From: Roseofilum casamattae BLCC-M143
Lineage (GTDB): Bacteria; Cyanobacteriota; Cyanobacteriia; Cyanobacteriales; Desertifilaceae
Direction of reading: 5' to 3'
DNA: 45,113 bases
NCBI RefSeq assembly: GCF_030068455.1
Contig: NZ_JAQOSQ010000028.1
Coordinates: 1 to 45,113 of the forward strand
Both the position numbers and the translations under genes were made by a program. The notes under the pieces are model-generated. The model was not told the DNA's origin. It made no database searches and saw only the letters and a list, made by a program, of their open reading frames with translations. Below, in pieces: positions 21,948-45,113 of this stretch. Position 1 is the first letter of the stretch, and each line of letters begins with the position of its first letter.

Positions 21948-22143
21948 CGATCGCTCTCTCCTCGAAAACTCATACTATTTCTATTTAAAATATCCCGCTC
22001 CTATGGGAGAAAGACTTTTCATGAACTCACTAAATTAGCCGTGTCGCGGCACTAGCACCCAATAAACCAAGCACTTTCGCAAGAGTCGTATTAAGATCGC
22101 CATCAGCAGACATTGTTTGCTTGTCCCCCATACTGGGTCAATT

Positions 22144-25023
22144 ATGCCTATGGAACCGCTACTCAAAGGGTTAGCGATTTTCACCCTCTGCCCATTACTC
22201 GGAGGAATTCCTCTCATCCAATGGTTTACCTTCTTGCTGACCGGGAAAAACCTGTCTCAGTTGGGAACCGGAAATATATCTGTATCGGCAGCATTTTATC
22301 ATGCCGGCACTCCAGCAGGGATTGCGTCCGTGTTATCAGAAGCAGGCAAAGGCATAGGTGCTGTGCTCTTGGCGCGATCGCTCTTTCCTCACGATCCGGT
22401 CTGGGAACCCATCGCCCTCCTCGCCTTGGTTCTCGGACGCTACTTTATCTCTCAAGGCGCAGGAACCACCAATGCTGCTTGGGGACTCATCGCCCACGAC
22501 TGGCAAATCTCCGCCCTAGTCGCCCTGATTGGGGGTATTGGTTGTACTGTCGTTCGCGATCGCAAATCTCGCCAATATGGCATCCTCGTCCTTTTTCCCC
22601 TGCTGCAATTTCTCATGCATCCCAATGCCAAAGGCTTGGCACTGGCTGCCCTTGCGCTCAATAGTACTCTGGCTCTCATCTACCTCCGCATTCCCGACGA
22701 TCTGTCCCTCTCCTCTGACGAGAGTCCTACCGAAACAGCAACCATGACCGGACTATTTTCTAGGAATAACGGCCTTCTCTCTCTCGATCGCAATCTCAAA
22801 TCCAAAGACGTTGGTGGAAAAGCCGCCAACCTGGCTTATCTGAAAAAACTGGGCTATCGCGTACCTTCCGGTTGGGTGCTCCTTCCCGGAGACGACCCTC
22901 AAATCGCGATCGCCAACCTCCAACCCTCGCCGCAAAATCCTCTAGTAGTGCGCTCCTCTGCCTTTGGTGAAGATACTCTCCACTCTTCCGCCGCCGGCCA
23001 ATACACCAGCATTCTCAACGTCACCAGTCCTCAAGCTCTGCATCAAGCTATTCTCACCTGCTTCCAATCTGTCGATAATCCGCAAGCAAAGGTCTATCGC
23101 CAAACCCGACAGCTCTTCGAGACCAAAATCGCCGTTTTAATCCAAAAACAAATTCCTGGAGTCTTCTCTGGGGTTGCCTTTAGCCGCGATCCGATCGCGC
23201 GGACGGGAGACGAGGTTGCCATCGAAGCGTTACCCGGAGATGCGGCCAGAATTGTCTCCGGACGAGTTACGCCAGAGGCTTATCGAGTAGCGGTTGTGGA
23301 GACCGATGGAGAACCGACAACGCAAATTGTCCAAGGAACCGGGGATGTTCCTCCCGCATTAATTCATCAGGTGGCGCAAATAGCTCGCCAAATTGAAAGC
23401 CATTATCGCGGTATTCCACAAGATATTGAATGGACTTATGATGGTCGGGAATTATGGATTTTGCAAACTCGCCCGATTACGACGTTGGTTCCGATCTGGA
23501 CGCGAAAAATTGCAGCAGAAGTCATTCCCGGATTTATTCATCCCCTGACCTGGTCGATTAATCAGCCCCTAACCTGTGGGGTCTGGCGCGATATTTTTGC
23601 GATCGCCCTCGGGACGAAAATGGCTCGCTTGGATTTGAATCGACTGGCAACATTGCACTCTTCCTCAGCGTATTTTAATGCCTCCTTACTCGGAGAAATC
23701 TTCCTTAAGATGGGACTGCCCCCAGAAAGTTTAGAGTTTCTGACCCGAGGTGCTAAATTTAGCCGCCCGCCCCTACTCTCTACCCTGAAACAATTGCCCG
23801 GACTGCTGCGCCTGGCCAACCGAGAGTGGAGATTAGAAGATGATTTTAACCGAGACGATCGCCAATGGTTTCAGCCCACTTTGGCTCAGTTAATCCAAGA
23901 GCAGCCGGAGAGCGATCTCGAGTACGGACATCGAATTGATTTAATTTTGGAAACCCTGAAACGAGCCACTTATTACAGTATTTTTGCCCCGCTCAGTTTT
24001 GCCTTAAGACAAGCCATTTTACGGATCGATCCGGAGGATTTAGATTGGACGGTGATGCCTGAGGTGGCAGCAACCCGCGCGCTGGAAGAACTGGCAACCT
24101 GTGCCCGTCGCTTGCTCCCAGATTTGGAAGACGAAACCCCAGAAACGTTATTTGGAACTCTTGCCGAGTCTCCCGACGGTCAAACCATCATCGACCAGTT
24201 GGCTGCATTCGTGCACGAGTATGGCTATTTAAGCCAAGTCGCCACGGATATTTCTGTTCCTCGTTGGTACGATAGTCCCAGAATGGTTCGCGATTTGTTT
24301 TTGCAACAGTTGCATGGCGAACCTGGCGATCGCCCTACGGTATTGCAGAAACAGCTAAAAATACAAATCGTGCAAGATCGTCTTCATTTGAAAGGGCGCG
24401 TGACTCAAGTTTACAGCCAGTTATTGGCTCAGTTGCGCTGGAGTTTTCTTCGTTTGGAGAAACGATGGTTGGAGCAGGGCAAATTAGAGATGGCAGGGGA
24501 TATTTTCTTTCTTACCCTTGCTGAAGTGCGATCGCTCATTGATACTGAGTCCGAGGTTTCGGCTAGTTTGTCCGAACTCCTGGCCGCGCGCAAAGCCGAG
24601 TTCGCTCGAGATAAGCAGTTGAAATCTTTGCCATACATTGTCTATGGCGATCGCCTGCCGACCCGAATTAGGCAATTCTCGCCATTGACAGGAGGGCAAC
24701 AGTTGCGGGGAATTGGCGCGAGTCCGGGACAAGCTCGCGGACAGGTGAAGATCGTACAAAATTTAGACTCGTTACCAGACATCAATCGGGATACCATTCT
24801 GGTTGTCCCTTACACTGATTCGGGTTGGACGCTCCTACTTTCGCAAGCAGGAGGCGCGATCTCGGAAGTGGGAGGTAAACTCTCTCATGGCGCGATCGTT
24901 GCACGGGAATATGGCATTCCAGCCGTGATGGATGTTCCCCACGCCATGGAAAAGCTCCGGGATGGGCAATGGGTACAGATTGATGGCAGCCAAGGAACGA
25001 TCGTAATATTGCGGACTGATTAG
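22144..25023 (+). CDS. PlsY-like membrane domain fused to PEP-synthase/RPH-like enzyme
   Basis: 959 aa from ATG 22144; the open frame extends back to a TTG at 22117, and an ATG at 22150 is also possible. Residues 1 to about 195 are a multi-pass membrane domain related to glycerol-3-phosphate acyltransferase PlsY, with motif 1 (LGTGNIS, about 40-46) and EAGKG (66-70). The second PlsY motif is altered: GH becomes GR (98-99) and GGKG becomes GAGT (105-108). A pyruvate-phosphate-dikinase-type ATP-grasp domain follows (about 210-445; DVGGKAANLAYLKK, VRSSAFGED, DIEWTYDG.ELWILQTRP). Then comes a long helical middle region (about 450-860) and a phosphohistidine swivelling domain with H915 in GGKLSHGAIVAREYGIPAV. 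ATP-grasp first, middle domain, His domain last is also the order of rifampicin phosphotransferase. The substrate is unknown. Confidence 0.85.
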   Translation: MPMEPLLKGLAIFTLCPLLGGIPLIQWFTFLLTGKNLSQLGTGNISVSAAFYHAGTPAGIASVLSEAGKGIGAVLLARSLFPHDPVWEPIALLALVLGRYFISQGAGTTNAAWGLIAHDWQISALVALIGGIGCTVVRDRKSRQYGILVLFPLLQFLMHPNAKGLALAALALNSTLALIYLRIPDDLSLSSDESPTETATMTGLFSRNNGLLSLDRNLKSKDVGGKAANLAYLKKLGYRVPSGWVLLPGDDPQIAIANLQPSPQNPLVVRSSAFGEDTLHSSAAGQYTSILNVTSPQALHQAILTCFQSVDNPQAKVYRQTRQLFETKIAVLIQKQIPGVFSGVAFSRDPIARTGDEVAIEALPGDAARIVSGRVTPEAYRVAVVETDGEPTTQIVQGTGDVPPALIHQVAQIARQIESHYRGIPQDIEWTYDGRELWILQTRPITTLVPIWTRKIAAEVIPGFIHPLTWSINQPLTCGVWRDIFAIALGTKMARLDLNRLATLHSSSAYFNASLLGEIFLKMGLPPESLEFLTRGAKFSRPPLLSTLKQLPGLLRLANREWRLEDDFNRDDRQWFQPTLAQLIQEQPESDLEYGHRIDLILETLKRATYYSIFAPLSFALRQAILRIDPEDLDWTVMPEVAATRALEELATCARRLLPDLEDETPETLFGTLAESPDGQTIIDQLAAFVHEYGYLSQVATDISVPRWYDSPRMVRDLFLQQLHGEPGDRPTVLQKQLKIQIVQDRLHLKGRVTQVYSQLLAQLRWSFLRLEKRWLEQGKLEMAGDIFFLTLAEVRSLIDTESEVSASLSELLAARKAEFARDKQLKSLPYIVYGDRLPTRIRQFSPLTGGQQLRGIGASPGQARGQVKIVQNLDSLPDINRDTILVVPYTDSGWTLLLSQAGGAISEVGGKLSHGAIVAREYGIPAVMDVPHAMEKLRDGQWVQIDGSQGTIVILRTD

Positions 25024-38384: not shown

Positions 38385-40667
38385 TCAACCCGGACGCGAA
38401 CCCTGCCATGCTTCGTAGAAATCAGGATAGGAGAGATTTCGAGCAATATCCCACAAGCGCTGGTAGCAATTTGTGAAGAGGTAAATATCTGTTTCATGAG
38501 TTTCACTATCTAGAAAAGGCTGGAGGACGGATACTATATGTTTCTGTTGTTCGACAGTAATAGGTTTCGGTGGTTTCCAACTAATGTATTTCCGATGCTC
38601 TAAAGTCGTTGTAATTTGTAATAAGGCATTGACTGCCTTTTTCCGAGTCACTGGATTGGAATTGGAGCGCACTATGTCTGCTAATGCTGCGATCGCATTA
38701 GAATTGCCGACAGCAATTTTTCCTAAACTATGAGCTGCTGCCTGACGAGTCTTGACATTAGACTCACAGCGCAAGATTTCGACTAAAGCTACAATTGCCT
38801 CGGGATTATCTACAGCAATTTTTCCTAAACTATGAGCTGCTTCCTGACGAGTCTTGACATTAGACTCACAGTGCAAGATTTTGACTAAAGCTGCAATTGC
38901 CTCAGGATTATCTACAGCAATTTTTCCTAAACTATGAGCTGCTTCCCGACGAGTCTCTACATTAGACTCACAGCGCAAGATTTCGACTAAAGCTGCAATT
39001 GCCTCAGGATTACCGGGGTCAATTCTGCCCAGACACCAAGCCGCTCGATAACGAGTTTTTCGATCGGAGTTGGAAGAGGCTATTTTGGCTAAAACTGCGA
39101 TCGCATCTGGGTTTCCGGCGGCAATCTGCTCGAGACTCCTACCCGCCAGCTTATAGATCTGTTCCTCCGGGCTGAAACAGGCTATTTCTATGAGGGTGGC
39201 GATCGCCTCAGAATTTCCAACTGCAATAAATCCTAAACTACAAATTGCGTGCCTGCGGGTTTCTGCATCTGAGTCATATCGGACTGTCTCGAGCAGAATT
39301 CCAATAGTCTGTGGACTTCCGACAGTAACTCCCTCTAAACTCCGAGCTGCGAGTCTGCGGATCTCTACATTGGAATCAGAGTCTAGCATTTTTTCTAAAG
39401 CAGCGATCGCGTGAAGATTTCCTGAGTCAATGTTCTCTAAGGTAGTAACGACCCTTCTACGGAGATCTGCATCAGAGCTAGAGCATATTATTTCTACTAG
39501 AGTTGCGATCGCTTCTGAGTTTCCAACAGCAATCTGTCCTAAAGTCTTCAACACCAATCTACGGAGACGAGTATTGCCATCCAAGTTAGAGCCTAGGATT
39601 TCTAATAGAGTTGCGATCGCCTCTGGGTTTCCTTCAGCAATATCCCACAAAGTCCTGGCTGCTCCCTGGCGGGTGTACTCCGGAGATTGTGAGTTTGTGA
39701 GGAGATTGCAGAGCGGCTTGATGGCTGCGTTGCTATTTGTCTCGAGGAGAACTTCTGTAGCTCCTTTTCTAATAAAATGGAGAACGGTAGACCACTTTTG
39801 TTTGTTGGTATCAAAATGCCCAAAACTCCACTGGACGATTTGCTGCGCGATCGCATCAGCAAGAGAACAAGATTTAAATTCGTTAATACCGGTAGCAGCC
39901 AGCCAGAAAGCACGATAGCCGTAACAACAACATCCATCCTCAAATTGCACCAATGTCCAAACGAAAGCTTCTTTCTGTTCTGACTCTACATCCTCGCGTC
40001 CCAACCAAAACAAAATTACCGGCTTCCACCGATCCTCAAAAATCCGGTATTCCTTTCCGGGAATGGGATAATCTTTATGGTCTTGCGGCAGGAAATAATC
40101 TCGGCTGGCGATCGCGAAAGCCGCAAAATACTCGGCAAATGTAGAAGAATAAAATTGGTAGGTTTTCTCATTAGTTTCTCCCTCTTGCAGCCAACCGACT
40201 TGCAAGGCGAGCTGACACGAGTTATTTTCTAAACTACCGAACTCTTCTGGCAGCCAATGCTCTGGCAACTCGAACTGAGAAAAATCCCCTTCCTCGTCTT
40301 TCACATTCATCGCTCGCAGTGCCAGCCTTCCCAGCTTCTGATGCAGCTCCTGTTTCTGGGACTCGGCAGGCAGTGTTTCTAATTTCCATTCATACAGAGC
40401 ATCAGCCAATTTCGCGTATAACTGCGATCGCATCTCTGGTAATGACTGCTCCTTGTTCCAGAGTAAGCATAACAACAATAACTCAGCCGGATGGGCGATC
40501 GCATTCTGCAGATAAGAATACTTGCCACTCTGCACCGTTTCCCATAATTCTGCTCCCACCTCTGGAGCATTGGCATCGCGAAACCAACCATGGATATACG
40601 CTTCTACCTCAGAGAGGTTGAATGGAGAGTTGGGACTCTCTTCAGAATCTAATGTTGTATCGCTCAT
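38385..40667 (-). CDS. HEAT-repeat protein derived from a NACHT ATPase (P-loop part missing)
   Basis: 760 aa from ATG 40667 (the frame opens at 40697). Residues about 12-100 match the winged-helix/arm region that follows the nucleotide-binding core of NACHT proteins (VEAYIHGWFRD, AIAHPAELLLLCLLW, LPEMRSQLYAKLADALYEW). Residues 100-330 continue as the post-NACHT helical region (YQFYSSTFAEYFAAF). From about residue 345 there are ten to eleven HEAT-like repeats of 34 residues (consensus TR..AA.SLG.IAVGNPEAIAAL.EIL). Walker A and B are absent, and no upstream frame supplies them. NACHT-HEAT proteins act in bacterial antiphage defence and signalling; this one is either a decayed fragment or a binding partner. 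No frameshift is needed to read the 760 codons. Flanked by direct repeats. Confidence 0.8.
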   Translation of the reverse strand: MSDTTLDSEESPNSPFNLSEVEAYIHGWFRDANAPEVGAELWETVQSGKYSYLQNAIAHPAELLLLCLLWNKEQSLPEMRSQLYAKLADALYEWKLETLPAESQKQELHQKLGRLALRAMNVKDEEGDFSQFELPEHWLPEEFGSLENNSCQLALQVGWLQEGETNEKTYQFYSSTFAEYFAAFAIASRDYFLPQDHKDYPIPGKEYRIFEDRWKPVILFWLGREDVESEQKEAFVWTLVQFEDGCCCYGYRAFWLAATGINEFKSCSLADAIAQQIVQWSFGHFDTNKQKWSTVLHFIRKGATEVLLETNSNAAIKPLCNLLTNSQSPEYTRQGAARTLWDIAEGNPEAIATLLEILGSNLDGNTRLRRLVLKTLGQIAVGNSEAIATLVEIICSSSDADLRRRVVTTLENIDSGNLHAIAALEKMLDSDSNVEIRRLAARSLEGVTVGSPQTIGILLETVRYDSDAETRRHAICSLGFIAVGNSEAIATLIEIACFSPEEQIYKLAGRSLEQIAAGNPDAIAVLAKIASSNSDRKTRYRAAWCLGRIDPGNPEAIAALVEILRCESNVETRREAAHSLGKIAVDNPEAIAALVKILHCESNVKTRQEAAHSLGKIAVDNPEAIVALVEILRCESNVKTRQAAAHSLGKIAVGNSNAIAALADIVRSNSNPVTRKKAVNALLQITTTLEHRKYISWKPPKPITVEQQKHIVSVLQPFLDSETHETDIYLFTNCYQRLWDIARNLSYPDFYEAWQGSRPG
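38711..39016 (-). repeat. Three 102-bp tandem repeats within the HEAT region
   Basis: Units starting at 38711, 38813 and 38915 are nearly identical at the DNA level (CAGCAATTTTTCCTAAACTA recurs exactly at 102-bp spacing), each encoding one 34-residue HEAT unit. Neighbouring units keep the period but are diverged, so the central three look recently amplified or homogenised. Confidence 0.85.
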
Positions 40668-40763
40668 GAACCACCGAGAACGCCATTGCGAACCCAATTA
40701 TTGCGAATTTTCAGTATATCTAATCTGCCCCAGGAATAACCTAGAGAGATCCTGAAGGCGATT

Positions 40764-40810
40764 CTGTAGAAAAGAATACCAACCAAATTAATCTCAGGTT
40801 CTAAAGGGCG
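40764..40810. repeat. Direct repeat, copy B (right of the HEAT gene)
   Basis: CTGTAGAAAAGAATACCAAC then CAAATTAATCTCAGGTTCTA and AAGGGCG, about 47 bp, matches copy A at 38330-38371 apart from a short insertion and a few substitutions. It lies between the HEAT gene and the divergent methyltransferase operon. Confidence 0.7.
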
Positions 40811-40909
40811 CTAACATAGAATGGTATAGCAAAGATTAAACACTATTGCGCTGCACTCATCTTTACCGAATCGTGCCCATTTGACTCGTTCCTCTCTGTT
40901 AACCCTCTC

Positions 40910-41968
40910 ATGATTGACTCCCCACATAACCCGTCCAAAGAGGTTTGGATTCAGCAAACGAACGAATCTCTGCGCATACCACAGAAAAAACGGAATGAGA
41001 GAGTAATAGACCTTTTTGCTGGCTGTGGCGGTTTAGCCCTTGGTTTTGAAGCCGTTGGACTCCAAACTTGTGGCTTTGAATCCAATACAGAATGCGTAGA
41101 GACATACCAGTTTAACTTAGCCGGTCAGTGCATAGGCGAGCATCTGACTCCCGATACTCGATATCCTGATGCCGAAATTATCATCGGAGGTCCTCCATGT
41201 CAGCCATTTAGTGTTGGAGGAAAGCAAAAAGGACTGGCAGATTCTCGAGACGGATTTCCCGTTTTTATTGCTGCTGTAGAGCAACTCAATCCAGATATAT
41301 TTTTATTGGAAAATGTGCGCGGTCTGCTTTATCGCAACAAATGGTATTTCGAGCAGATCCAAAACAGATTAGAGAAACTTGGATATATCGTGGAAGCCAA
41401 ATTACTCAATGCGAAATATTATGGCGTTCCGCAAAACAGAGAAAGAGTTATTGTTGTCGGCCATCGCGGAGGCTTTCAGTTCCCAACTCCCCAAACCCAG
41501 ATTATCTCGGCTGGCACTGCTCTCGGCTCTATGTTTGAGGAAATACCGGATAATGTTAAGTGGCTGACTCCAAGTATGGATGCCTATATTGCTAAATATG
41601 AGAAAGCCAGTTGTTGTCGCAACCCGCGCGATCTCCATTATGACAAACCCGCTAGAACACTCACTTGTCGTAACTTAGCGGGTGCCACGGGAGACATGCA
41701 TCGCATACGCTTACCCGATGGTGGTCGCAGACGTATTACCCTGAGAGAAGCTGCTCGGCTTCAGTCTTTCCCCGACTGGTTTCAGTTTGCTGGTCGTGAA
41801 ACTAGCCAGTATTATCAAGTGGGAAATGCTGTTTCGCCTTTGTTTGCTAAAGCTCTGGCTCAGTCTGTTATCGATTACCTGGATAGGGGGACCGAGTATA
41901 CTTCTGAAGCAGTTATCCAAGGTAACAAAACTAAAGAGCAGAAACGAAAAATATTAGAAGCTGTATGA
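40910..41968 (+). CDS. DNA (cytosine-5-)-methyltransferase
   Basis: 352 aa. All m5C methyltransferase motifs are in order: motif I DLFAGCGGLALGFE (34-47), motif IV GGPPCQPFS with catalytic C97, motif VI ENVRGL (134-139), motif VIII QNRERVIVVG, then the target-recognition region (about 205-255), motif IX ARTLTCRNLAG and motif X YYQVGNAVSPLFAKAL. The enzyme should be active; its target sequence cannot be read from the protein. Its last 4 bp (ATGA) overlap the start of the endonuclease III gene, giving translational coupling. Divergent from the HEAT gene across 242 bp. With the nuclease-like gene two steps downstream, it could be the modification half of a restriction-modification system. Confidence 0.95.
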   Translation: MIDSPHNPSKEVWIQQTNESLRIPQKKRNERVIDLFAGCGGLALGFEAVGLQTCGFESNTECVETYQFNLAGQCIGEHLTPDTRYPDAEIIIGGPPCQPFSVGGKQKGLADSRDGFPVFIAAVEQLNPDIFLLENVRGLLYRNKWYFEQIQNRLEKLGYIVEAKLLNAKYYGVPQNRERVIVVGHRGGFQFPTPQTQIISAGTALGSMFEEIPDNVKWLTPSMDAYIAKYEKASCCRNPRDLHYDKPARTLTCRNLAGATGDMHRIRLPDGGRRRITLREAARLQSFPDWFQFAGRETSQYYQVGNAVSPLFAKALAQSVIDYLDRGTEYTSEAVIQGNKTKEQKRKILEAV

Positions 41969-42618
41969 GTATAACTCGCAAATGGTCTAGCCAACAACAA
42001 AAAGCTCGGGAAATCCTGATTCGGCTGAAACGCTTGTATCCAGATGCCACATGTAGTTTAACCTACGACAGTCCGGTACAGTTGCTCGCGGCTACGATTC
42101 TTTCTGCTCAATGTACAGACGAACGAGTGAATAAAGTGACTCCAGAATTATTTAGTCGCTATCCGGATGCACCGGCAATGGCAGCAGCTCCTTTGGAAGA
42201 GCTAGAAACTTTAGTGCGATCGACTGGATTTTATCGGAATAAGGCGAAAAATATTAAAGGTTCTTGTCAGAAAATTGTACAAGATTTTGACGGTAAAGTT
42301 CCGAAAACTATGGAGCAGTTGCTGACTCTTCCTGGAGTGGCGCGGAAAACAGCTAATGTGGTTCTCGCTCATGGATTTGGCATTAATATGGGAGTAACGG
42401 TCGATACTCACGTAAAGCGCTTGAGCAAGCGTTTGGGATTGACCAAATCCGATAATCCGATTCAGGTGGAACGAGATTTAATGCGCTTGTTGCCGCAACC
42501 GGATTGGGAAAATTGGTCGATTCGCTTAATTTATCACGGTCGTGCGGTTTGTCGCGCTCGAAAACCGGATTGCGATCGTTGTTCTTTGGTCGATTTGTGC
42601 GACTTTGTCAATAGTTAA
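41965..42618 (+). CDS. nth: Endonuclease III
   Basis: 217 aa. Bifunctional DNA glycosylase/AP lyase of base-excision repair acting mainly on oxidised pyrimidines. The helix-hairpin-helix is LPGVARKTA (122-130) with catalytic K128; the catalytic Asp is D147 in VTVDTHVKRL. The C-terminal [4Fe-4S] loop is C196-x6-C203-x2-C206-x5-C212. These are the classic Nth residues, unlike the thymine glycosylase Mig.Mth, which lacks the Lys. Start ATG overlaps the methyltransferase stop (ATGA), an arrangement that ties its expression to a cytosine-5 methyltransferase. It may be the cell's housekeeping nth captured behind the methyltransferase, or a dedicated partner. Confidence 0.96.
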   Translation: MSITRKWSSQQQKAREILIRLKRLYPDATCSLTYDSPVQLLAATILSAQCTDERVNKVTPELFSRYPDAPAMAAAPLEELETLVRSTGFYRNKAKNIKGSCQKIVQDFDGKVPKTMEQLLTLPGVARKTANVVLAHGFGINMGVTVDTHVKRLSKRLGLTKSDNPIQVERDLMRLLPQPDWENWSIRLIYHGRAVCRARKPDCDRCSLVDLCDFVNS

Positions 42619-42636
42619 TGGTTGGAGAGTGGAGTT

Positions 42637-43272
42637 ATGGCTTATAGTAATTTTACGGACGTAGAGGCGATCGCAAACGAATTAAATCTGTCGGTTATTA
42701 GCCGCAAACATTTGTTTTCCGATATTCCAGCCATAGACTACAGTCAGTTGTTGACGCAGATACTAGAAGATAACGTACCTCTCGCTTTGGCAATTAATAC
42801 GGAAAAATCTCGTTCGGAATTAATTATTACTCCAATTCTGGTTGAGTTACGCAAAAAAATGCAGGACAAAATTAGTCTGTTTTCCGGTCGCGAGTTTAAT
42901 GTGGCTCCGGAAAAAGGATTAAATGGATTTTGCGATTTTTTGATTAGTCGGTCTCCAGAACAGTTGTTTATTCAAGCTCCCGCGATCGCGATCGTGGAAG
43001 CGAAAAATGATAATATTCAAGGAGGTTTAGCTCAATGTATTGCCGAAATGGTTGCCGCGCAATTGTTTAACGAACAAAAGCAGAATGCGATCGCCCGAAT
43101 TTATGGAGTAGTAACGACAGGCACAAATTGGCGTTTTTTGCAACTGGAAGATCGGGTAGTACAAGTCGATTTAACCGAATACTTTTTAGATAACCTAGGT
43201 CAAATTATCGGAATTTTCTGCGCTTGTATCGACGATCGCGAGGATGGCTCGGTGGAATCGCCTGACCTATAA
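42637..43272 (+). CDS. Putative PD-(D/E)XK-fold protein
   Basis: 211 aa from ATG 42637, with GGAG about 9 bp upstream; a TTG at 42622 opens the frame 3 bp after the nth stop. The centre has a nuclease-like pattern: FCDFLISRSP followed by IAIVEAKNDN, that is Asp then E-x-K at the end of a beta strand, then GGLAQCIAEMVAAQ helix with Gln. This resembles PD-(D/E)XK proteins, including restriction enzymes. The final part contains YGVVTTGTNWRFLQL, seen in several uncharacterised cyanobacterial proteins. Function unproven: restriction endonuclease partner of the upstream methyltransferase, or an unrelated conserved protein. Confidence 0.7.
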   Translation: MAYSNFTDVEAIANELNLSVISRKHLFSDIPAIDYSQLLTQILEDNVPLALAINTEKSRSELIITPILVELRKKMQDKISLFSGREFNVAPEKGLNGFCDFLISRSPEQLFIQAPAIAIVEAKNDNIQGGLAQCIAEMVAAQLFNEQKQNAIARIYGVVTTGTNWRFLQLEDRVVQVDLTEYFLDNLGQIIGIFCACIDDREDGSVESPDL

Positions 43273-43304
43273 TAACGGAGTCAGCCTAACATGAGCGAGC
43301 GATC

Positions 43305-44294
43305 GTGAAACCACTTCAGGGAAAAATTGCCTTAGTTACGGGAGCCTCGCGCGGGTTAGGGAAAGGAATTGCGATCGGATTAGCCGAAGCGGGTGCTACG
43401 ATTTATTTGACCGGACGGACGTTGGAGGCCGCGGGAGAAGAGGTCTCGGACGAACAGCGTTTGGGGAACTTGGTGGCGACTCAGAAAGCGGTAGAGGACG
43501 CTGGAGGGGTGGGGATTCCGGTGCGAGTGGATCACGGCGATGACGAGCAAATTCGCCAGCTATTCGATCGCATTCAAGACGAGCAGCAGGGACAGTTAGA
43601 TATTCTGGTGAATAATGCTTATTCTGGGGTTTCCAGCTTGCGCGCTACCTACGGCAAACCCTTTTGGGAGTCGGAACCGAGTTTGTGGGATAAAGTCAAT
43701 CACGTGGGGTTGCGCAGCCATTATATTACTAGTGTTTATGCCGCGCGGATGATGGTTCCCCGCAAACAAGGAGCCATATTTACGCTTTCGTCTTGGGGAG
43801 GATTGTTTCCCGTGTTTGGTGCGGTTTATGGGGTAGGGAAAACGGGGTGCGATCGCCTGGCATTAGAATTAGCCTTAGAACTAAAATCCCATAATATTAC
43901 TTCATTATCGGTCTGGCCGGGAATCGTCGGTACGGAACAGTTTATCCAGTTTTTCCAAGAACAAGACTCTGCTCCTACACCAGAACCGCAAGGCAACCCA
44001 TTCGGTGATGGCTATAATTGGGAAACTCCCTTACTCGCAGGACGAGTAATTGCCTGTTTGGCCGCCGATCCTGGGATAATAAAACGTACGGGGAAAGTTC
44101 ATATCGTGGCAGAGGAAGCGCGGCGATATGGCGTTGTCGATAAAGAGGGAAATCAGCCAGCTTCGTTGCGATCGCTCCGATTTATTTTACCGTTACTTAT
44201 CCCACAATTGCGATCGTACTCGACATGGGTTCCCAATCTGCATATTCCTTGGCGCGCCTTAGCTGCTTTTGTCTTACAATCTCCGCAAGTTTAG
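43305..44294 (+). CDS. Short-chain dehydrogenase/reductase
   Basis: 329 aa, longer than the usual 250 because of a C-terminal extension (about residues 255-329). NAD(P)-binding TGASRGLGKG at 13-22, NNAYSG in the central strand region, catalytic Ser in TLSSWGG and the YxxxK pair in YGVGK. The pattern is close to the DHRS1-like group. Substrate unknown. GTG start at 43305; an alternative start is not obvious, and no strong ribosome site is seen. It lies 32 bp after the PD-(D/E)XK-like gene on the same strand, and its stop directly abuts the IS630 element. Confidence 0.88.
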   Translation: MKPLQGKIALVTGASRGLGKGIAIGLAEAGATIYLTGRTLEAAGEEVSDEQRLGNLVATQKAVEDAGGVGIPVRVDHGDDEQIRQLFDRIQDEQQGQLDILVNNAYSGVSSLRATYGKPFWESEPSLWDKVNHVGLRSHYITSVYAARMMVPRKQGAIFTLSSWGGLFPVFGAVYGVGKTGCDRLALELALELKSHNITSLSVWPGIVGTEQFIQFFQEQDSAPTPEPQGNPFGDGYNWETPLLAGRVIACLAADPGIIKRTGKVHIVAEEARRYGVVDKEGNQPASLRSLRFILPLLIPQLRSYSTWVPNLHIPWRALAAFVLQSPQV

Positions 44295-45113
44295 TAGTGG
44301 ACTGGCAAGCTTAAAATTATGGGTAAGAGTTATCGGAGCTATCTATGAGTAACCCCAATCTCAAGTATCGCATTAAACTGAGTGTTGAGCAACGGCAAGA
44401 ATTGCTAGAGATAGCCAAAAATGGGAAAAAGTCAGCGAAAGAAATCTGTCACGCGAATGTTCTATTAATGGCCGATGACAATGCAATAGAAGGTCGGTGG
44501 AGGGATGTGGATATTAGTGCGGCTCTCAATATGCATGTGAATACCATTGCCTCCATCCGAAAGAAATTTGTTCAGGGAGGAATCCAACCAGCAGTGGAGA
44601 GGAAACCTCGCTCTTCTCCCCCGAATCCCCCCAAGTTAGATGGGCGACAAAAAGCCTATTTAATTGCCCTGTGTTGTAGTGAAGCTCCCCAGGGAAGAGT
44701 GCGTTGGACGCTGCAATTACTTACCCAAGAATTTAATGCGCGATCGCTAGCGGTTTCGATTAGTAAAGAAGAAGATTATCATTATGGACGACATGGAACC
44801 CAAGCGATATTTATGTTTATTGACCCGAATCGTGGCTGGAGAAGAGTGAGTAATCGCCAGCAAAGAACGAAGAAAGATTGGGCAGAAGAAATTGAGCAAT
44901 TATTGGAGGTAGATTATCCTGATGCTCGGAAAATCAAGCTAGTGAGTGACAATCTGAACACTCATAATATTTCTTCTTTATATGCCAAATTTCCGGCTCA
45001 GAAAGCTCGACGTTTAGCAAGAAGATTGGAAATGTATCATACTCCTCGCAATGGAAGTTGGCTAAATATGGCGGAAACTGAATTGAGCGTGTTGTCCAAA
45101 CAATGTCTAGATC
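44295..45113 (+). mobile_element. IS630-family element, left end and body (cut by window edge)
   Basis: The IS630-type transposase gene starts 50 bp after the SDR stop codon. The intervening segment (TAGTGGACTGGCAAGCTTAA and following) is probably the left terminal inverted repeat, next to a TA dinucleotide as expected for IS630. The right end is outside the window, so the repeat cannot be confirmed. Confidence 0.6.
44345..45113 (+). pseudogene. IS630 transposase with internal deletion, 3' end outside window
   Basis: One open frame from ATG 44345 to the window end (256 codons). The N-terminal part is normal for cyanobacterial IS630 (LKYRIKLSVEQRQ, ALNMHVNTIASIRKKF, ERKPRSSPPNPPKLDG, CCSEAPQGRVRWTLQLL). 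After VSISKE the chain jumps directly to EDYHYGRHGTQAIFMF. In intact relatives about 75-80 residues lie between these points, including the ETVRQTLKK helix and the strand with the first catalytic Asp. The other two DDE residues remain (VSDNLNTH and AETELS). The deletion keeps the frame, but the product should be catalytically dead. Confidence 0.75.

What the first reader, a model, noticed from the sequence alone, without database searches (positions are those of the whole stretch)
40910..43272. Cytosine-5 methyltransferase translationally coupled to endonuclease III, then a PD-(D/E)XK-like gene
Three genes are packed as one unit: m5C methyltransferase, nth overlapping its stop by 4 bp (ATGA), and a putative nuclease 3-18 bp further on. 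Deamination of m5C makes T:G mismatches, and some restriction-modification systems carry a dedicated repair enzyme (Vsr, or the Nth-family thymine glycosylase Mig.Mth). Here the coupled enzyme keeps the standard Nth catalytic Lys/Asp and Fe-S cysteines, so it is not a plain Mig.Mth copy. The set could be a restriction-modification module with built-in base repair, or the cell's only nth placed under methyltransferase control.
Basis: partly seen in the sequence, partly recalled or inferred. Interest (0 to 1): 0.7.

Follow-up and report, generated by a model that had tools for sequence, protein, structure and literature searches.

The report
Orphan methyltransferase joined to nth by deletion
In one cyanobacterium a DNA-methylating gene lost its partner DNA-cutting gene, and the break left its end overlapping the start of the cell's only clear endonuclease III repair gene; it looks like an accident of genome decay, not a purpose-built repair module.

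Summary
In detail: an m5C methyltransferase (MTase), nth overlapping it by ATGA, then a PD-(D/E)XK-like gene 3-18 bp on. The reading as a restriction-modification module with built-in repair is not supported.

This MTase family normally has a BsuBI/PstI-type restriction endonuclease (REase) directly downstream: of 80 GTDB loci, 58 have a full adjacent copy and 6 none despite enough DNA. The window genome has no such domain. The window MTase's last 15 residues match, 12 of 15, REase residues 11-25 encoded right behind its closest relative's MTase, L063. So the tail is an in-frame REase scar that ends at nth's own start codon, which creates the overlap.

nth is ordinary, vertically inherited and the genome's only clear nth, and has lost the neighbours it has in congeners. 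No nth was found beside this MTase in 12 relatives or in the 80 loci.

The third gene is one of 9 matches scattered in this genome, not the MTase's partner.

The parts
40910..41968 (+). C5-cytosine DNA methyltransferase, motifs intact, now without its restriction endonuclease
   Evidence: PF00145 217.6 bits; alignment A1 with 11 relatives; sister to L063, 100/100
41921..41965 (+). Scar: last 15 residues of the methyltransferase, derived from residues 11-25 of the lost BsuBI/PstI-type restriction endonuclease (the first of them, Gly, could also be the methyltransferase's own)
   Evidence: 12 of 15 identical to the L063 REase N-terminus, score 59 against a shuffle maximum of 31 (300 shuffles, same peptide) and 33 (60 shuffles, six frames); numbering checked; the L063 ORF is REase by family profile, 28.8 bits. 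The family profile itself does not detect the short tail.
41965..41968 (+). ATGA: nth start codon overlapping the methyltransferase stop; inferred deletion junction
   Evidence: Sequence; five same-genus nth genes begin at the same codon with other DNA upstream
41965..42618 (+). nth, endonuclease III, only clear copy in the genome, vertically inherited
   Evidence: TIGR01083; single clear copy; groups with same-genus nth 96/94
42622..43272 (+). PD-(D/E)XK-like protein of a dispersed paralogue family (ATG start at 42637); neighbour, not partner
   Evidence: PADLOC PDLC01472; 9 matches in this genome; D100, E121-A-K123 and Q133 invariant in 10 aligned members; differing neighbours

Best explanation
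The unit is the relic of a type II restriction-modification pair: an m5C MTase that was followed by, or fused to, a BsuBI/PstI-type REase. In this lineage an in-frame deletion (72 bases relative to L063) removed the MTase's native C-terminus, its stop and the first ten REase codons. A further deletion or rearrangement removed the REase from about codon 26 onward and joined the remnant to the start codon of the native nth. The MTase still looks intact and is now solitary. The ordinary Nth is probably translated from the MTase message by stop-start reinitiation at ATGA and does general base excision repair. The third gene is a bystander. Shown: gene content, missing REase, scar match, single clear nth, lost nth context, no conservation. 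Inferred: order of events, methylation activity, co-transcription and coupling.
For: Four sampled proteins behind or fused to the MTase in relatives carry PF06616, three of them also PF17728. In 12 relatives: separate full-length REase in 5, fused full-length in 2, broken or truncated in 3, none in 2. In 80 GTDB loci: 58 full adjacent, 10 partial, split or distant, 5 cut by the contig end with the REase start visible, 6 none, 1 without downstream DNA. PF06616: 0 matches in G000; 19 of 59 genomes positive in the same call, among them 9 of the 12 MTase-bearing relatives. Scar: 12 of 15 residues, and 32 of 39 bases counted by hand on the alignment. L063's downstream ORF is REase by profile, and the later part of a REase lies at another contig end of that genome. 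nth vertical, ancestral context gone. MTase dN 0.13, dS 2.13 against L063.
Against: The scar is 15 residues long and rests on one close relative; a profile of 48 REases does not detect it. The L063 REase ORF itself runs into a stop after 83 codons just before its contig end, so that this REase is intact is not shown. Only one genome shows the junction and no reads or second strain could be checked, so a misassembly is not excluded. The dN/dS figure covers both branches since L063, dS is near saturation, the second method failed, and it need not apply after REase loss.
Confidence: 0.85

Rival explanations
1. A dedicated RM or methylation-plus-repair module: the coupled Nth repairs T:G (or related) lesions made by deamination of this MTase's 5mC, as Vsr does beside dcm or Mig.Mth beside its MTase.
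For: An m5C MTase and an HhH glycosylase gene overlap by ATGA. The analogous vsr lies downstream of dcm and is co-transcribed with it (PMC12907096, passages).
Against: Not found in 12 relatives or 80 GTDB loci. nth is the genome's own housekeeping gene, 82-84% identical to same-genus nth genes that lie in other contexts. It scores 267 bits as nth, but only 57.7 bits with PADLOC's nicking-endonuclease model and 59.8 bits with the G-T repair enzyme 1kea.
Confidence: 0.05
2. The junction is real and, whatever its origin, is now functional: the methyltransferase promoter drives the only nth, so losing the MTase would also reduce Nth, which helps keep an otherwise dispensable orphan MTase.
For: Only clear nth; the upstream DNA of same-genus nth genes is absent; no + strand promoter-like site in 40600-43400. 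A repair gene stabilising a solitary cytosine MTase is reported in PMC12907096 (passages).
Against: No expression data. The scan covers only a sigma-70-type consensus, found none before the MTase either, and its total was at chance (3 found, all on the - strand, shuffle mean 4.4). The MTase is also kept without a REase and without nth beside it (6 of 80 loci).
Confidence: 0.35
3. The MTase-nth junction is an assembly chimera.
For: Seen in one draft genome of 74 contigs; no reads available. A 12-base exact direct repeat has one copy 9 bases before the nth start and one inside nth, although such two-copy repeats are often chance.
Against: The join is neat (the MTase stop is formed at nth's native start codon), no repeat spans it, and no other strong nth match exists in this 98% complete genome.
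Confidence: 0.08
4. The PD-(D/E)XK-like gene is the new restriction endonuclease of the MTase.
For: Same strand, close by, PD-(D/E)XK signature.
Against: 9 matches in this genome and 0-28 per genome in 59 genomes. In nine other regions examined the neighbours differ. None lies within the 10-18 kb around the MTase of 12 relatives. The MTase family's REase is of the BsuBI/PstI type.
Confidence: 0.03

Closest known systems
Type II RM pair: m5C MTase plus BsuBI/PstI-type REase (PF06616/PF17728), as in L051 and L053
   Same: Homologous MTase; the window's C-terminal tail matches the start of such a REase in L063
   Different: The REase itself is gone; nth occupies its place
Solitary (orphan) m5C methyltransferases derived from decayed RM systems
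   Same: Intact-looking MTase, no adjacent REase; this origin is suggested in print (PMC12907096 and PMC6471742, passages)
   Different: Here the scar is still readable and the next gene is a repair gene
dcm-vsr operon of E. coli
   Same: m5C MTase gene followed directly by a DNA repair gene (co-transcription of dcm-vsr: PMC12907096, passages)
   Different: Nth is not a Vsr and is not conserved with the MTase
Mig.Mth T:G glycosylase beside its MTase (the linkage is recalled; Mig.Mth as an Nth-like Fe-S glycosylase: PMC9266487, passage)
   Same: HhH glycosylase with Fe-S cluster motif next to an m5C MTase
   Different: Window protein is a canonical Nth by NCBIfam cut-off and catalytic residues

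Membership tests
Endonuclease III (Nth) | Equivalog model above cut-off | tested here: met
   TIGR01083 267.1 bits, cut-off 211.7
Endonuclease III (Nth) | Catalytic Lys and Asp and four Fe-S cysteines | tested here: met
   K128, D147, C196/203/206/212 by motif; role of the residues recalled
Mig.Mth-type T:G glycosylase | Closer to Mig.Mth than to Nth | tested here: not met
   1kea 59.8 bits against 197.5 bits for Nth 1p59; PADLOC nicking-endonuclease model 57.7 bits
Mig.Mth-type T:G glycosylase | T:G glycosylase activity | not testable with these tools
   Needs enzymology
m5C DNA methyltransferase | PF00145 with the catalytic PPCQ, ENV and QxRxR motifs | tested here: met
   motifs present in alignment A1; their roles recalled
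Type II RM system (m5C MTase plus BsuBI/PstI-type REase) | REase gene present | tested here: not met
   0 PF06616 matches in G000; 19 of 59 genomes positive in the same search. Other kinds of REase in the genome were not searched for.
Solitary MTase from a decayed RM system | Usual REase partner, remnant at the locus, REase now absent | tested here: met
   the remnant is 15 residues
PD-(D/E)XK nuclease superfamily (211-aa protein) | D...E-x-K signature and family model | tested here: met
   PADLOC PDLC01472 E 2.6e-53; invariant D100, E121, K123, Q133. No NCBIfam match and no Pfam model above its cut-off.
PD-(D/E)XK nuclease superfamily (211-aa protein) | Fold | tested here: inconclusive
   Single-sequence AlphaFold2 pLDDT 34; the profile against PDB gave one weak non-nuclease hit, E 0.02; among 10 members in Pfam, PDDEXK_12 matched 1 (E 0.095) and PSDC 4 (best E 0.0015)

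The most novel reading that the evidence does not exclude
RM decay has wired a housekeeping base-excision gene into an epigenetic operon: the cell's only Nth is made solely by reinitiation on the MTase message, so methylation and repair of oxidised or deaminated bases rise and fall together, and the orphan MTase is held in the genome because losing it would cost nth. This would be a new way for an orphan methyltransferase to become fixed, separate from any regulatory role of its methylation.
Probability: 0.15. Interest if true: 0.65.

Novelty: new variant of a known kind. Interest (0 to 1): 0.4.

Why it matters
It gives a readable case of how an orphan methyltransferase arises: a stretch of the lost endonuclease's N-terminus is still fused to the methyltransferase, and the neighbouring gene shows what the deletion joined to it. 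It warns that an ATGA overlap between functionally linked-looking genes can be a deletion scar. It also makes one idea testable: that a repair gene captured downstream can entrench a solitary cytosine methyltransferase.

Tried and rejected
Rejected: a conserved MTase-nth-nuclease module; the PD-(D/E)XK-like gene as cognate REase; nth acquired together with the MTase (the nth tree groups it with the genus; the MTase groups with Cyanothece SIO2G6 and far from the same-genus MTase-REase fusions).

Led nowhere: genome-contig scan with the single MTase sequence; viral-contig scan with the 211-aa protein; single-sequence fold of the 211-aa protein; PDB profile search; Pfam scan of the 83-aa L063 ORF (no hit at 1e-4; the purpose-built profile did hit); promoter and terminator scan, both at chance; REase protein query against the own genome, empty but without a positive control. 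The methylated motif could not be predicted.

Rows dropped: L055 was left out of alignment A1; L148 and L150 were skipped in the MTase tree and L051 is represented there by L090. The 12 relatives leave out G047, which has only pieces of a similar MTase (54% over 151 residues and 62% over 74, with a stop), on the same one-contig genome as its nth but about 108 kb away.

Papers: for PMC12907096, PMC6471742, PMC9266487 and PMC12707154 I saw passages; all others only as search listings. The listings of searches show no title on an m5C MTase-nth junction or on an m5C MTase paired with a BsuBI/PstI REase; the library holds open-licence papers only.

Full report
What is there. The three ORFs are as described: an m5C methyltransferase at 40910-41968, nth at 41965-42618 overlapping it by ATGA, and a 211/216-aa ORF ending at 43272. 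Domain searches agree. That it is a cyanobacterium is inferred: its MTase's nearest named relative is Cyanothece sp. SIO2G6, and a same-order genome, G011, holds the same MTase and REase stretch as an uncultured cyanobacterium record.

nth is ordinary. It passes the nth equivalog cut-off and keeps K128, D147 and four cysteines. It is the only strong nth match in the genome; two weaker hits score better as MutY than as nth (170.6 against 84.4 bits and 210.6 against 73.6; both scanned as fragments, below the MutY cut-off). 58 of 59 genomes in the relatives search, the window's included, have nth at E<=1e-30. In a tree of 20 nth proteins the window groups with five same-genus nth genes (96/94), so it is the native gene. 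In those five genomes nth has other DNA upstream and sits beside other genes, in four of five a divergent permease ORF that I name FecCD-type by eye. No other window ORF of 90 aa or more matches the 8 nth regions examined. The permease orthologue of the window genome is on another contig with a different gene upstream. So nth stands in a new context.

The methyltransferase belonged to a restriction-modification system. Of 58 other genomes in the relatives search, 12 have a near full-length MTase at 53-62% identity; a thirteenth, G047, has only pieces. Behind the 12 lies a separate full-length endonuclease ORF in 5 and an in-frame fused one in 2; it is broken or truncated in 3 (G009, G012, G036) and absent in 2 (G016, G028). 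Four sampled proteins carry PF06616 (BsuBI/PstI REase), three of them also its N-terminal domain PF17728. In 80 GTDB loci found with the alignment (the best 80 of 349 were kept), 58 have a full-length adjacent REase, 10 a partial, split or distant one, 5 a REase start cut by the contig end, 6 none, and 1 no downstream DNA. The six without are all cyanobacteria: one Calothrix, four Brasilonema, one Scytonema. None of the 80 has an nth match in the DNA held, nor have the 10-18 kb around the 12 relatives' MTases. Among 386 genomes of the phylum, 13 including the window have this MTase at E<=1e-100. Of the 8 newly fetched there, 5 have a near full-length REase match, 1 fragments and 2 none, and none has nth (at most about 1.5 kb of flank, less for some).

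The window genome lost that endonuclease. PF06616 gives no match in it, while 19 of the 59 genomes searched match in the same call, 9 of the 12 MTase-bearing relatives among them; at least 8 of the 19 sit in much longer ORFs of another make-up. A REase protein query also found nothing (without a positive control). Other REase types were not searched for.

The scar. The closest MTase relative, L063 (75% identity; sister with 100/100), ends with its own stop and is followed 6 bases later by an ORF that a profile of 48 REases recognises (28.8 bits, residues 12-70). That ORF meets a stop after 83 codons just before the contig ends, so this REase is not shown to be whole; the later part of a REase of that genome lies at another contig end. 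The window MTase lacks L063's native C-terminus. Its last 15 residues instead match residues 11-25 of that REase, 12 of 15 identical, score 59. The best of 300 shuffles against the same peptide is 31, and the best of 60 shuffles against all six frames of L063 is 33. The family-wide profile does not pick up so short a tail. Read against L063, 72 bases are missing in frame: the MTase's last residues and stop, the spacer and REase codons 1-10 (by inspection). After the matching block the window runs straight into nth's native ATG, which supplies the TGA stop. L060 (G012) shows what looks like an intermediate: an MTase fused to the first part of a REase without the catalytic domain. No repeat spans the join; a 12-base exact repeat lies 9 bases before the nth start and again inside nth, perhaps by chance.

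How it works, most likely. The MTase keeps its motifs and changes slowly (dN 0.13, dS 2.13 against L063 over 330 codons; dS near saturation, second method failed), so I expect it to methylate still, as a solitary enzyme. Nth is probably made by reinitiation at ATGA on the MTase transcript. No + strand promoter-like site was found in 40600-43400, before the MTase either, so the scan decides nothing. Expression, methylation and coupling are inferred.

The third gene. It has the PD-(D/E)XK signature, with invariant D100, E121, K123 and Q133 in 10 aligned members, and PADLOC's PD_DExK model recognises it and two paralogues. Pfam gives nothing above cut-off; weak hits favour PSDC (4 of 10 members) over PDDEXK_12 (1 of 10). 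It has 9 matches in this genome; 40 of 59 genomes have any, up to 28. The nine other regions examined have differing neighbours, two of them with a second copy close by. The fold could not be modelled from the single sequence. I take it for a bystander from a dispersed family.

Against what is known. That solitary MTases can derive from degenerate RM systems is in print (PMC12907096; PMC6471742; passages), as is stabilisation of a solitary cytosine MTase by a Vsr-like repair gene (PMC12907096). The new part is the readable scar and the capture of nth.

Limits. One genome, no reads, no expression; the scar rests on one close relative; names for flanking genes without a domain call are by eye.

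Noticed in passing
L079, L093, L098, L114, L115, L140 (also L055, L060, L061, L106, L122): The same MTase is kept while its BsuBI/PstI REase is missing, truncated or broken in several other cyanobacterial loci, suggesting repeated endonuclease loss with MTase retention.
   Followed up: partly
L059 and L062 (same-genus genomes G003 and G001): MTase and BsuBI/PstI REase are fused in one ORF of 684 or 670 aa.
   Followed up: partly
window 22117-25023: One 968-aa ORF carries a glycerol-3-phosphate acyltransferase domain, a PPDK_N domain and a PEP-utilizers domain, an unusual combination.
   Followed up: no
window 38385-40697 (-): HEAT-repeat protein with the NACHT C-terminal NCC-H domain but no NACHT domain found, divergent to the MTase.
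   Followed up: no
window 44345-45113: The contig appears to end inside a transposase-like ORF (by eye, not tested), about 1.1 kb past the PD-(D/E)XK-like gene; a possible agent of rearrangement.
   Followed up: no
G000 (9 matches) and up to 28 per relative genome: The 211-aa PD-(D/E)XK-like family is strongly amplified and scattered in some genomes of the order and absent in others, with no common neighbour seen.
   Followed up: partly
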